From assembly GCA_026874595.1 (NCBI GenBank), contig CM049313.1:50455659-50519658 (forward strand): 64,000 bases of DNA. Reading direction: 5' to 3'. This document shows, in pieces, positions 14,938-46,850 of this stretch. The position numbers were made by a program, and so were the translations under genes. This DNA is from Sipunculus nudus. Its lineage: Eukaryota; Annelida; Sipuncula; Golfingiida; Sipunculidae. Each line of letters begins with the position of its first letter. Position 1 is the stretch's first letter. The notes under the pieces are model-generated. The model was given only the letters and a program-made list of their open reading frames with translations. It was not told where the DNA came from and searched no databases.

Positions 14938-16534
14938 TCTGTACGAGGCGTAAGGCCTGTCTTCTCAGTTTTTTGTGTGGCTGATATACCCGCGCTGTAC
15001 GATGTGTAAGGCCTGTCTTCTCAGTGTGTTGTTTTGGCTGATTTACCCCCCGCTGTACGACGTTTAAGACCCATCTTCTCAGTGTGTTATGTGGCTTATA
15101 TACCCCCGCTGTAAGACGTGTAAAGCCCGTCTTCTCAGTGTGTTATGTGGCTTATATACCCCCCGCTGTACAACGTGTAAGGCCCGTCTTCTCAGTGTGT
15201 TATGTGGCTTATATACCCCCCCCCCCCCCCTGTACGACGTGTAAGGCCCGTCTTCTCGCTATGTTGGCTGATACATCCCACTGTACGACGTGTAAAGCCC
15301 GTCTTCTCAGTGTGTTGTGTGGCTGATATACCCCCGCTGTACGACGTGTAAGGCCCGTTTTCTCAGTTTGTTATGTGGCTTATAACCCCCCGCTATACGA
15401 CGTGTAAGGCCCGTCTTCTCAGTGTGTTATGTGGCTTATATACCCCCGTTGTACGACGTGTAAGGCCCGTCTTCTCAGTGTGTTATGTTGCTTATATACC
15501 CCCGCTGTACGACGTGTAAGGCCCGTCTCCTCAGTGTGTTATGTGGCTGACATACCACCGCTGTACGACGTAAAATGTCAGTCTTCTCGGTGTGTTGTTT
15601 GGCTGATAAACCCCCGCTGTACGACGTGTAAGGCCCGTCTTCTCAGTGTGTTGTGTGGCTTATATACCCGCCCCCCCCCCCCCCCCGCTGTACGACGTGT
15701 ACGGCCCGCCTTCTCAGTGTGTTATGTGGCTTATATACCCCCCGCTGTACGACGTGTAAAGCCCGTCTTCTCAGTGTGTTATGTGGCTTATATACCCCCA
15801 ACGGTACCACGTGTAAGGCCCATCTTCTCTGTGTTTTATGTGGCTGATATATCCCCGCTGTACAACGTGTAAGGCCCGTCTCCTCAGTGTGTTATGTGGC
15901 TTATATACCCCCCGCTGTAAGACGTGTAAGGCTCGTCTTCTCACTGTGTTATGTGGCTTATATACCCCCTGCTGCACGACGTGTTAGGCCCGTCTTCTCA
16001 GTGTGTTATGTGGCTTATATACCCCCCGCTGCACGACGTGCAAGGCCCGTCTTCTCAGTTTTTTATGTGGCATATAAACCCCTGCTGTACGACGTGTACG
16101 GCCCGTCTCCTCAATGTGTTATGTGGCTTATATACCCCCCGCTGTACGATGTGTAAGGCTCGTCTTCTCAGTGTGGTATGTGGCTTATATACCCCCCGCT
16201 GTACGACGTGTAAGGCTCGTCTTCTCAGTGTGTTATGTAGCCGATATACCCCCCCCCCCCCGCTGTACGACGTGTAAGGTCCGTCTTCTCAGTGTGTTAT
16301 GTGGCTGAGATAACACCGCTCTACGACTTGTAAGGCTTGTCTTCTCAGTGTGTTATGTGGCTTATATACCCCCCGCTGCACGACGTGTAAGGCCCGTATT
16401 CTCAGTGTTTTATGTGGCTTATATACCCCCGCTGTACGACGTGTAAGGCCCGTCTTCTCAGTGTGTTATGTGGCTTATATACCCCCCGCTATACGACATG
16501 TAAGGCACGTCTTCTCAGTGTGTTATGTGGCTTA
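14938..16534 (+). repeat. 56-57 bp minisatellite, left part (about 28 units)
   Basis: Each unit holds GCTGTACGACGTGTAAGGCC, then CGTCTTCTCAGTGTGTTATG, then TGGCTTATATA and a C run. The C run varies from about 4 to 18 bases between units (for example near 15218, 15669 and 16250). This shifts the frame and explains the many overlapping short ORFs with CGLYTP or CYVAYIPPAVRRVRP repeats. Units are more divergent at the left edge and homogeneous in the middle, as expected when an array turns over by unequal exchange or slippage. It continues at 18567 after a transposon insertion. Confidence 0.95.
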
Positions 16535-18568
16535 CCGTATTCGACGTAATAAGCGCCCCGGGCGCTCTCAAAATTAAATTTTTCTAAAATTTTTTATACC
16601 CTAATAAGCGCCCCCCCCCCCCCCCCCACATCTGCCAACTTCCAAAGTGCATTACGATCCTCCAATTTAACACTGCGGCTTGTGTACACGTGTTTGACTT
16701 CACAGCACATTCAGGACAATTCAGAAAAAAAACAATGATCATTTAACAATGGTTGTGTAATCCAAGTGATACCGATTTGCAGACGATTTTTTTTTGTGTT
16801 GCATGAGGGAATTGTCTAAATGACTACAGTTCGAGATTTCCTTAGCAGGTTAAGAGGAAAAATAAGGATGGTAATAAATGAACACTTTTATAAAAGTCAA
16901 AGTCTAATAAGGTAGCAGAATGTATAAAATGTTCATATAAAAATATATTAATCATTTATTTGAATGATGAAAAAAAAAATAATACGGGACATCGGTACCC
17001 CGATTATGTCAGTCACCTTGCGCAAATACCTTTGACAGCTGAGCCGATTAATGACATGGAATGGCATCGACAATAATTGTCTTTTTTGTCTTTCATTGTG
17101 CTTGATATTACATGCAAAAGTTTTTAAAAAAATGAAAACTGGCCCTCAGACTCTTGCGTATTATATTTACTTCAGTGCGTATACGAACCAAATCCGGGGT
17201 TTTGTTTTAAAATTGTTAGGAAATTTCTCATATTTATATCCCGCGGAAACACGGTCCCTTTCTTGAACTTTGTTGACCCGTTATAATACATTCATTTTCT
17301 CGACGTAGTCCAATAATACAAGCTTGACAAACATTGTCACCTGAGGAAAGGCCGCTTCATATTTATAATTATAATGCGTTACTGGTTGTCTTGTAATTGA
17401 AGTGCCATGAGCGAGTCTCCGTGTATGTCAGTGTGCAAGCAAGCTGACAGCGTCCGCATTCACTGGACTCGTGAACATTTTACGCAGTAAATACGGCACC
17501 ATATGAAAAAATCATCCTCGTTTTAACATGCATATTACGTGCTACTGGGTGGCACTTGGTTAGGCAAATTCCCAGCATCCCTTGCGCGAGAGCTGTATAC
17601 ACACAGATTAACCCAGGGCACTGGGATTTTGAGAACACGGGTAAGCCCTGCACGCTGTCAGCGGCATCGACAATTATATTACTGTGTACATGTTTCAAGT
17701 GAATTACCAAGATATTTTTTGGCAAAAAATACATTAAAACTTATATATTATCAGGATTGGGAATTCCGTTTTGGTCCGTCAATTCCGCAATTCCGTCCGC
17801 GGTTGCGTAAATTCACTGGCTCTACTGTCAGAAGGGCTTTCATATATTGATTCAGTTAAAATCCCTGTGTCAATGCGGCAAGGGCAAACCTTTTCTTACC
17901 AATTATTTAACTATGTGCACATGGAAATCTGATGTATAAACGATAAATTCAAATAAAAACAAAGCATTGTAATGCTCTTTATTGAGTGTATATTACCACC
18001 ATACGGACATGATCACTGATATTCACGGCATCAAGTTCGGCCGACGTAATAATTCACATTGCCGTAAATTATCCTTGGCGGCCCTGAGGACGCTGAGAAA
18101 CTTGTACCAGTGTATCAAATGGCCGCCCTTCTTTGCTTATAATTTAGGATAAAATTTATCGTCCATCACGAGCAAATACGGTAAGTAATATATATTTCAT
18201 TGCATAATACATCCACATACGTACCTGAATTCAGGTCACCCAATCAGCATGGCCACTTGCAGGGTCTGCCTTCACGGACACCGTCATCCAGTCTTATCTA
18301 TGATACACTTGACCACTGATTCTGTTATGGTTAACTAATATTATTATTATATTATATGATAAAGCTTAACGGAGATTGAATAAAAACTGGTGGTAACTTT
18401 TAAGCTTGGCGGGGAGAAATGAAAGCATTACGTTGTCCTGTGTTATATTGGCTAGGGAGAAAAGTGAGGTTAGGATGGCTCACCCTTTAGTTTCATAAAG
18501 TGATCTCCAAAATCCGGTGGGGGGGGGGCCTTATTACGGGAGGGGCGCTTATTACGTCGATTACGGTA
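16533..18568. mobile_element. 2,032 bp inverted-repeat element inserted in the minisatellite
   Basis: The element occupies 16535-18566, flanked by a TA on each side (16533-16534 and 18567-18568). Its ends are inverted repeats: CCGTATTCGACGTAATAAGC on the left and, reverse complemented, CCGTAATCGACGTAATAAGC on the right. Both continue with GCCCC, giving 24 of 25 matching bases. Removing it with one TA rejoins GTGGCTTA to TATACCCC exactly as in intact units. A second TAATAAG(C)GCC-plus-C-run motif lies just inside each end. A TA duplication is typical of Tc1/mariner-like and ISL2EU-type elements. No transposase is visible (longest frame 103 codons, 17539-17850, unrecognised), so it is probably non-autonomous. 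Confidence 0.88.
16611..16627. repeat. C17 homopolymer inside the inserted element
   Basis: Run of 17 C following the internal TAATAAGCG motif. A G run of about 10 near 18521-18530 mirrors it at the other end of the element. Confidence 0.9.
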
Positions 18569-19078
18569 TATATACCCCGCTGTACGACGTGTAAGGCCCG
18601 TCTTCTCAGTGTGTTATGTGGCTTATATACCCCCGCTGTACGACGTGTAAGGCCCGTCTCCTCAGTGTGTCATGTGGCAGAGATACCACCGCTGTACGAC
18701 TTGTAAGGCCGGTCTTCTCAGTGTGTTATGTGGCTGAGATACCACCGCTGTACGACGTGTAAGGCTCGTCTTCTCAGTGTGTTATGTGGCTTATATACCC
18801 CCGCTGTACGACGTGCAAGGCCCGTCTCCTCAGTGTGGTATGTGGCTTATATACCCCCCGCTGTACGACGTGTAAGGCCCGTCTCCTCAGTGTGTTATGT
18901 GGCTTATATACCCCCGCTGTACGACGTGTAAGGCCCGTCTTCTCAGTGTGTTGTGTGGTTTATATGGCCCCGGTGTACGACGTGTAGGCCCGTCTTCTCT
19001 GTGTGTTGTGTGGCTGATATACCCCCGCTCTATAAGCTCTAAATACATGTCTTATCAATGTATTCTTTGGCTGATATT
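18567..19078 (+). repeat. 56-57 bp minisatellite, right part (about 8 units plus decayed edge)
   Basis: Continuation of the array that begins at 14938, in phase with it once the inserted element is removed. Units are clear to about 19035. One strongly decayed unit follows to 19078 (CTCTATAAGCTC to TTTGGCTGATATTA), and the R1 repeat begins directly after it. Confidence 0.93.
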
Positions 19079-45279: not shown

Positions 45280-46850
45280 GAGTGTTCTTTCTTTCTACAA
45301 CGTGACCTAGTACAGGAACCAATATCTTTCCTCTTCTACGAGAATATCTTGAAGGGTACCCTGTTGCCTTAATTTTTGTGCATGATAAGCTTATACAAGA
45401 CAAAGCTGTCTTTTCTCGCTCTACCTGATTCACTAGAACAGTTGTGCCTTTCTCTCTTCAGCATGATAAGTTAGTACAGGACTCTTTCATCGTCTACATG
45501 TCCATCTTGAACAGAACCCAGTTGTCATTATTTCTTCTAACCAGTACAAGGTTTATCATTCTTCCATTTCTGAATAATTAGTGCAGCACCCAGCCATCTT
45601 ACTATATCTACATTATTATTCCCTCAACATAGCTAACTAGAACGGGCTCAGTTGTTTTGATCCGTCGAAATGGTTAAGTAGAACAGGGCTGGGTTTTCTT
45701 ATTCTGTTTATATGGTCAACTATAACAAGGCCCATTTGTATTATTTCGTCTACATCGTTAACCAGAACAGGGCCAAGCTGTTTTTCTCCGTCTACATGGT
45801 CAACTTACCATGGCCCAGTTGTCTTATTCGGGCTACATAGTTAACTAGAACAGGGCCGAGTTGCCTTATTCCGTCTTATTGATTTTCTAGAACAAGGTCC
45901 AGTTGCCTTATTCCATCTACATTGTTTACTAGAACAGGGCCGAGTTGCCATATTCCGTGTAATTTATTTTCAGAACACGGCTCAGTTGCCTTATTCTATC
46001 TACATGCTTTACTGTAACAGGGACCAGTTGATTTATTTCGTCTACATGGTTAATTAGAACAGGGCTCATTTGTATTATACCGTGTTTGTGGTTTACTTGA
46101 ACATGGCCAATTTGCTTATCCGTCTACATGGTTTACTAAAACAGGGCCCATTTGTCTTAATCCATCTACATGGTTTACTAGGACAGGGCCCAGTTGCCTT
46201 ATTCCGTCTAATGGAATTCCTAGAGCGGGGCTCAGTTGCCTTATTCCATTTACATGGTTTACAGGGCCAAGTTTTCTTATTTCGTCTGCATGGTTAACTA
46301 GAACAGGGCCTAATTTTCTAATTCCGTCTGCATGGATTACTAAAACAGGGCTCAATTGTCATAATCCATCAGGGCCCAGTTGCCTTATTCCGTCTAATTG
46401 ATTTTCTGGAACAGGGCCCAATTGTCATAATCCATCTACATGGTTTACAAGAACAAGGCCCAGTTGCCTTATTCCGTCTAATTGATTTCCTAGAACGGGG
46501 CTCAATTGCCTTATTCTGTCTAATTGATTTCCTAGAACAGGGCTCAGTTGCCTTATTCCATCTACTTGATTCAGTGGAACAGGGCCCAGGTGTCTTATTC
46601 CGTCTATATGGTTAACTAGAACAGGGCCCATTTGTCTTATACCATCTTCATGGTTTACTAGAGCATGGCCTATTTGCTTATCCGTCTTCATGGTTAAACA
46701 GATCAGTGTCCATGAGTCTTATTCCGTCTACATGGTTTACTAGAACAGAACCCATTTTTCTTATTCCATCTTCATGGTTTAATAGAACAGAGCCCATTCG
46801 TTTCATTTCATCTTCATGGCCAGTTAGTGCAGCACGTGGTCATGTTACAT
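45280..46850. repeat. 42 bp minisatellite (about 35 units, decayed at both edges)
   Basis: Each unit reads CGTCTACATGGTTTACTAGA followed by ACAGGGCCCAGTTGCCTTAT and TC. Units are recognisable but irregular from 45280 to about 45650, regular from about 45700 to 46800, then fade by 46850. Because 42 is a multiple of three, minus-strand frames of 79 and 88 codons (46116-46355 and 46425-46691) translate as a 14-residue repeat like LGPVLVNHVDGIRQ. Stops interrupt between them and no start context or signal is evident, so coding is unlikely. Confidence 0.93.

What the first reader, a model, noticed from the sequence alone, without database searches (positions are those of the whole stretch)
16533..18568. 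Transposon caught inside a minisatellite, with a base-exact empty site
A 2,032 bp element with 25 bp inverted ends (one mismatch) and TA duplications splits a 56-57 bp tandem array. Deleting it plus one TA regenerates a normal unit. The neighbouring units on each side serve as the pre-insertion control, so the insertion point and TSD are unusually certain. Both ends carry a second TAATAAG(C)GCC motif followed by a C run, an unusual double-terminus design. No transposase is visible.
Basis: seen in the sequence. Interest (0 to 1): 0.75.

Follow-up and report, generated by a model that had tools for sequence, protein, structure and literature searches.

The report
Hitchhiking DNA transposon inside a minisatellite
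A 2-kb piece of mobile DNA that cannot move by itself has landed inside a short tandem repeat; it belongs to a family with hundreds of matching ends in the same animal-sized genome, so it is an ordinary, clearly bounded member of a known kind.

Summary
The insertion is real. Window 16535-18566 (2,032 bp), flanked by TA on both sides, has 25-bp inverted ends with one mismatch and splits a 56-57-bp tandem array. In the window's own 1.43-Gb genome 15 other places match it end to end at 93-96% (40 of 1563 candidates scored). TA plus 23 letters of its end occurs 684 times within 3 mismatches, reversed control 0. Homology stops at the proposed ends: identity falls from 96%/90% inside to 29%/34% outside, with TA on the left in 18 of 19 copies and on the right in 19 of 19.

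Two corrections. The empty site is not base-exact: the join reads (TA)4, while the 19 other units of that form read (TA)3. The doubled end motif is not unusual: 16 of 19 ends from 10 pogo-type loci here carry a similar repeat.

It is a non-autonomous cut-and-paste transposon, probably moved in trans by an IS630-Tc1-mariner-group transposase; pogo/Tigger-like is my best guess. No transposase with these ends was found, so the superfamily is inferred.

The parts
14939..16532 (.). left part of the 56-57-bp minisatellite array (host site)
   Evidence: Tandem Repeats Finder, 27.8 copies of a 56-bp unit over 14939-16534
16533..16534 (.). left TA of the target site duplication
   Evidence: TA in 18 of 19 aligned copies on this side
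16535..18566 (+). non-autonomous DNA transposon, 2,032 bp
   Evidence: 15 other end-to-end places at 93-96% in the same genome; homology ends here
16535..16559 (+). left terminal inverted repeat, 25 bp
   Evidence: exact 24-mer CCGTAWTCGACGTAATAAGCGCCC occurs 102 times in the genome, reversed control 0
16602..16612 (+). second, inner TAATAAGCGCC motif of the left end, 55 bp inside the first
16611..16627 (+). run of 17 C at and behind the inner motif
   Evidence: read; length varies among copies
18519..18528 (-). run of 10 G (C on the minus strand) next to the inner right motif
   Evidence: read; length varies among copies
18527..18537 (-). inner right-end motif GTAATAAGGCC, 18 bp inside the outer one
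   Evidence: D3, I7; right-end motif seen once in 5, twice in 13 and three times in 1 of 19 copies (counted by eye in the alignment)
18542..18566 (-). right terminal inverted repeat, 25 bp, one mismatch to the left one
18567..18568 (.). right TA of the target site duplication
   Evidence: TA in 19 of 19 aligned copies on this side
18569..19029 (.). right part of the minisatellite array
   Evidence: Tandem Repeats Finder, 8.2 copies of 56 bp

Best explanation
The element is one copy of a family of non-autonomous cut-and-paste DNA transposons. A DDE transposase made elsewhere in the genome bound the motifs at its two ends, cut it out and inserted it at a TA inside one minisatellite unit; repair of the gaps duplicated the TA. 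SHOWN: family, exact ends, TA flanks, no coding capacity found, insertion inside a tandem array. INFERRED: cut-and-paste in trans; transposase of the IS630-Tc1-mariner group (about 0.75), most likely its pogo/Tigger branch (about 0.5), which is abundant here and has ends built in a similar way. The extra TA in the reconstructed site is best read as a one-unit slip in the (TA)n run, before or after insertion.
For: 15 other end-to-end copies at 93-96% on nine contigs (40 of 1563 candidates scored). TA plus 23 letters of the end: 684 times at up to 3 mismatches, reversed control 0. The exact 24-mer end, searched without the TA, is preceded by TA in 29 of 30 fetched loci and 18 of 20 more; some of these are ends of the copies aligned. 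Identity collapses at both ends. Pfam DDE_1 (the pogo/Tigger-type domain; that label is mine): 150 places scored of 517 candidates. Tc1/mariner-type DDE_3: 22 places, all 88 candidates scored, six of them with one and the same score on small contigs. 16 of 19 ends from 10 pogo-type loci have a 12-bp motif repeated at 15-17 bp that at most 3 of 200 single-letter shuffles match; our right end has it at 18 bp (4 of 200). PMC7386202 (passages read) gives TA duplications for pogo families other than Fot/Fot-like and inverted repeats of 40 bp or less for most.
Against: No transposase gene with these ends was found. None of 20 fetched DDE_1 loci carries them within about 1.5 kb. None of 150 DDE_1 and 22 DDE_3 places lies within 20 kb of the first 114 listed ends (nearest 24.9 kb). 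Only about 178 distinct ends were listed, out of 684 or more. The ends begin CCGTA, whereas the pogo-type ends seen here begin CAG. Our left end fails the periodicity test (32 of 200 shuffles; its second motif lies 55 bp in), as do 3 of the 19 pogo-type ends. Seven of the 10 pogo-type loci share one kind of end, so the 19 ends are not independent. 5 of 19 copies of our family have only one right-end motif (alignment).
Confidence: 0.8

Rival explanations
1. It is an internally deleted or filled copy of a still unseen autonomous element of some other superfamily that also makes 2-bp TA duplications, for example a Mirage-like CMC element (recalled, not tested), or a lineage of its own.
For: The ends start CCGTA, unlike the pogo-type ends seen here; no matching transposase was found among the DDE_1 and DDE_3 places examined.
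Against: Nothing positive points to another superfamily; Pfam finds no transposase in six frames of the window copy or of the 4.5-kb copy L060. Other transposase families were not searched in the genome with an answer.
Confidence: 0.2
2. It is an ISL2EU-type (PHIS) element: 2-bp duplication, short inverted repeats.
For: Two-base duplication in an AT-rich target.
Against: PMC4482050 (passages read) gives AT duplications with target A|AT|T and ends usually beginning GG; here the duplication is TA and the ends begin CCG.
Confidence: 0.03
3. The longer copies (L059, 8.7 kb; L060, 4.5 kb) are the autonomous parent and the 2-kb element is their deletion product.
For: Both carry these ends and an extra block at the same place, about position 195.
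Against: The same block, with the same starting letters, also interrupts a copy at about position 598 (L096), so it is another repeat nested in the element. The longest stop-to-stop frames are 138 aa in L059 (beginning in the element itself) and 104 aa in L060. Pfam on L060 gives one match, STL11_N at E 0.01, below its cut-off and not a transposase; L059 was not scanned.
Confidence: 0.03
4. Assembly artefact: a high-copy repeat wrongly joined into a tandem array.
For: Both parts are repetitive; the joined site is off by one TA.
Against: The element has both complete ends with TA on each side, and array units abut it directly on both sides, as an insertion predicts and a misjoin would not.
Confidence: 0.03

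Closest known systems
pogo/Tigger superfamily of IS630-Tc1-mariner DNA transposons and their non-autonomous derivatives
   Same: TA duplication, inverted repeats under 40 bp, size within the 1.2-5.2 kb stated for pogo, inner repeats of the end motif like pogo-type elements of the same genome
   Different: no transposase found; ends start CCGTA instead of CAG
Tc1-type elements with two transposase sites per end (IR/DR design, as in Sleeping Beauty; recalled)
   Same: two copies of a motif at each end of the window copy, TA duplication
   Different: inverted repeats of 25 bp, not about 230 bp (recalled figure); Tc1/mariner-type DDE_3 places are few in this genome
ISL2EU (PHIS superfamily)
   Same: two-base duplication
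   Different: AT instead of TA, ends usually GG instead of CCG (PMC4482050 passages)

Membership tests
non-autonomous TIR DNA transposon | terminal inverted repeats shared by dispersed copies | tested here: met
non-autonomous TIR DNA transposon | homology of copies ends at the inverted repeats | tested here: met
   19 copies plus the window copy, (L058 left out because its left end is broken)
non-autonomous TIR DNA transposon | fixed-length target site duplication | tested here: met
   TA on the left in 18 of 19 and on the right in 19 of 19 copies; TA before 47 of 50 single ends. At the window's own site the reconstructed target has one TA more than the other 19 units of that form
non-autonomous TIR DNA transposon | no transposase gene | tested here: met
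pogo superfamily (IS630-Tc1-mariner) | TA duplication | tested here: met
   definition from PMC7386202 passages
pogo superfamily (IS630-Tc1-mariner) | transposase with DDE_1 and CENP-B/Tc5-type DNA-binding domain in an element with these ends | tested here: inconclusive
   no such element among 20 loci read; of 150 places none within 20 kb of 114 ends, two within 20 kb of 70 variant ends, unread; 367 of 517 candidates unscored; DNA-binding domain search did not complete
pogo superfamily (IS630-Tc1-mariner) | ends beginning CAG, as in the pogo-type loci of this genome | tested here: not met
   ours begin CCG; the PMC7386202 passages seen give no letter rule, so this is a local comparison, not a definition
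Tc1/mariner | DDE_3 or Transposase_1 protein in an element with these ends | tested here: inconclusive
   22 DDE_3 places, nearest 422 kb from a listed end; Transposase_1 search did not complete
ISL2EU | AT duplication and ends beginning GG | tested here: not met
   TA and CCG against PMC4482050 passages

The most novel reading that the evidence does not exclude
The CCGTA...TACGG elements (this family and a second one, 'B', that shares its ends) are moved by a TA-specific transposase lineage that is not pogo, Tc1 or mariner and reads an 18-bp-spaced motif whose number changes between copies. The extra TA at the site would then reflect a different repair or staggered-cut rule rather than slippage.
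Probability: 0.07. Interest if true: 0.5.

Novelty: new member of a known kind. Interest (0 to 1): 0.2.

Why it matters
It supplies a well-bounded non-autonomous family in an unnamed 1.43-Gb genome, with a readable near-empty site. It also warns that a tandem array is a weak control: unit length looked normal (57 bp) although the join differs from the 19 units of the same form. Naming the partner transposase would show what mobilises hundreds of such ends.

Tried and rejected
Rejected: long copies L059/L060 as autonomous parents (nested repeat). The 5.4-kb pair of ends on C1 as a coding element: L012 plus L101 cover its first 3.1 kb, depart from the other B copies at L012 position 2724, and hold no frame over 108 aa inside; the remaining 2.3 kb were not read. 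A weak Pfam match to STL11_N (E 0.01 in L060, 0.19 in the window copy): the stretch holds stops and its only solved-structure match, also an SLT11 protein, has E 0.28; taken as chance. Matches to phage records: 26 records, the 20 listed at E 0.2-0.6, 2% of the query. The viral-contig scan for a 16-bp end found nothing. Rfam: nothing in the window. Pfam on 10 long frames of the window elsewhere: two matches below cut-off, eight frames none.

Paper searches, seen as listings: 'AATAAGCGCCC' in 0 papers; 'AAGCGCCC' in 265, 20 listed, no transposon title among them; recalled fish-repeat words in 28, 20 listed, two of them on maize Ac transposition, none opened; topic searches (531 papers, 20 listed; 50, 15 listed; 16, 15 listed). 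Three papers were opened, passages only. None of this shows that the family is unpublished; Repbase and Dfam were not available.

Not answered: the minisatellite elsewhere in the genome, Transposase_1, HTH_Tnp_Tc5.

Full report
What was checked. The window is G000:C8:50455659-50519658 of an unnamed 1,426,538,692-base genome in 153 contigs. At 16533-18568 the sequence reads TA, a 25-bp end, about 2 kb, the inverted end with one mismatch, TA. The element without the TA is 16535-18566, 2,032 bp. Such a pair of ends is not expected by chance (mean 0.00 in 100 shuffles). The element interrupts a 56-57-bp tandem array, 14939-16534 and 18569-19029; the array is 52-54% G+C, the element 39%.

Family. 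A search with the element found 1563 candidates, of which 40 were scored. Besides the window itself, 15 places match query letters 1-2036 at 93-96%, and five more lack up to 40 letters at one end. The exact 24-mer end occurs 102 times, with 0 for the pattern read backwards. TA plus 23 letters, at up to 3 mismatches, occurs 684 times (337 and 347), again with 0 in the control. Hundreds of elements or remnants therefore share these ends.

Boundaries and duplication. Nineteen copies (L039-L057; L058 left out because its left end is broken) were aligned with the window copy. Pairwise identity is 95.7% over the first 30 columns and 89.9% over the last 30 (window copy included), but 28.8% and 34.1% in the flanks (19 copies). 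The bases next to the ends are TA in 18 of 19 on the left and 19 of 19 on the right. The 24-mer search did not include TA, yet 29 of 30 loci and 18 of 20 more have it in front; several of these ends belong to the aligned copies. Single copies are 96.1-98.7% identical to the majority base (window copy 98.1%), so the family looks fairly young; no rate is available for a date.

Empty site. Removing the element and one TA joins the flanks to GGCT(TA)4CCCC. The script found 29 spacers in the joined array; 20 have the form GGCT(TA)nC, of which 19 have n=3 and only the join has n=4. So the array shows an insertion inside a unit but not a base-exact empty site. The likeliest cause is a gain of one TA in the TA run, before or after insertion; this is inference.

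The doubled ends. In the alignment the right-end motif appears once in 5, twice in 13 and three times in 1 of 19 copies (counted by eye), in an 18-bp register in the window, with C/G runs of varying length. In the window the left inner motif lies 55 bp inside. For comparison I took 10 of the 20 fetched DDE_1 loci, those with a clear inverted repeat beginning CAG (L072 had another kind and was not used, the rest had none clear). Of 19 ends, 16 repeat a 12-bp motif at 15-17 bp that at most 3 of 200 single-letter shuffles match; the other three do not (21, 99 and 112 of 200). Our right end does so at 18 bp (4 of 200), our left end does not (32 of 200). Seven of the 10 loci share one kind of end, so these are not independent cases. 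The design is thus shared with ordinary elements here and fits a transposase that binds more than one site per end; binding is inferred, and the copies with a single right motif show that the inner one is not always kept.

No autonomous partner. Six read-through frames of the window copy give one Pfam match at E 0.19, below cut-off. Two longer copies, L059 (8.7 kb) and L060 (4.5 kb), keep both ends but owe their length to another repeat nested at about position 195; that repeat also sits at about position 598 of L096, so it is not part of the element. A second family, B (L012, L024, L031, L036; L021 in part), has the same 25-bp ends; its copies agree at 93-96% over about 1.2 kb. Its right end matches ours at about 85-89% in L012 and L031 and at 64-70% in L036 and L024, and the first 224 bases of L021 match at 79%. 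No frame over 108 aa was seen in the part of B inside the ends that I read (L021, a mixed copy, has one of 109), but no B copy was read whole. DDE_1 places are abundant (150 scored of 517 candidates), DDE_3 few. None of the 20 DDE_1 loci read has our ends. Of the first 114 listed ends none is within 20 kb of any of the 172 transposase places. Among 70 ends of a variant form (six already listed), two have a DDE_1 place within 20 kb, at 6.5 kb (C14:33607643) and 18.2 kb (C2:10703822); about 0.4 within 10 kb are expected by chance. The nearer stretch could not be fetched. Together about 178 ends were compared, out of 684 or more.

Reading. This is a non-autonomous, TA-duplicating cut-and-paste transposon, most likely served by an IS630-Tc1-mariner-group transposase, with pogo/Tigger the best guess by abundance and end design. 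Papers: PMC7386202 (passages) for pogo features; PMC4482050 (passages) for ISL2EU, which does not fit; PMC10045372 (passages) for TA as the usual duplication of the group. Whether Repbase already holds this family could not be tested.

Noticed in passing
L059:694-7365, L060:693-3303, L096 from about 696: A repeat of about 2.6 kb starting ACAAGGGACCTATGGGTCAC and ending TTATAGTCAGCTGAGCT in L060, with diverged internal repeats of about 600 bp, is nested in copies of this transposon at two different positions; in L059 it is expanded.
   Followed up: partly
G000 contigs C107, C110, C117, C120, C124, C131: Six small contigs carry DDE_3 matches with the same score (5.8e-29) and open frames of 202-207 aa, far better than any on the large contigs; possibly a contaminant or one repeated stretch.
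   Followed up: no
L061, L063, L068, L074 and others: DDE_1 elements with TA-CAGTGGAGCGCCGTTCATCCGAACA ends; among the 150 listed DDE_1 places open frames reach 693 aa, so some may be intact.
   Followed up: partly
G000:C15:36450160-36452109 and C15:36631616-36633565: Two pairs of ends with the same orientation and identical spacing, 181 kb apart, suggest a segmental duplication.
   Followed up: no
45616-46819: A second minisatellite of 42-bp units, about 29 copies in two adjoining stretches.
   Followed up: no
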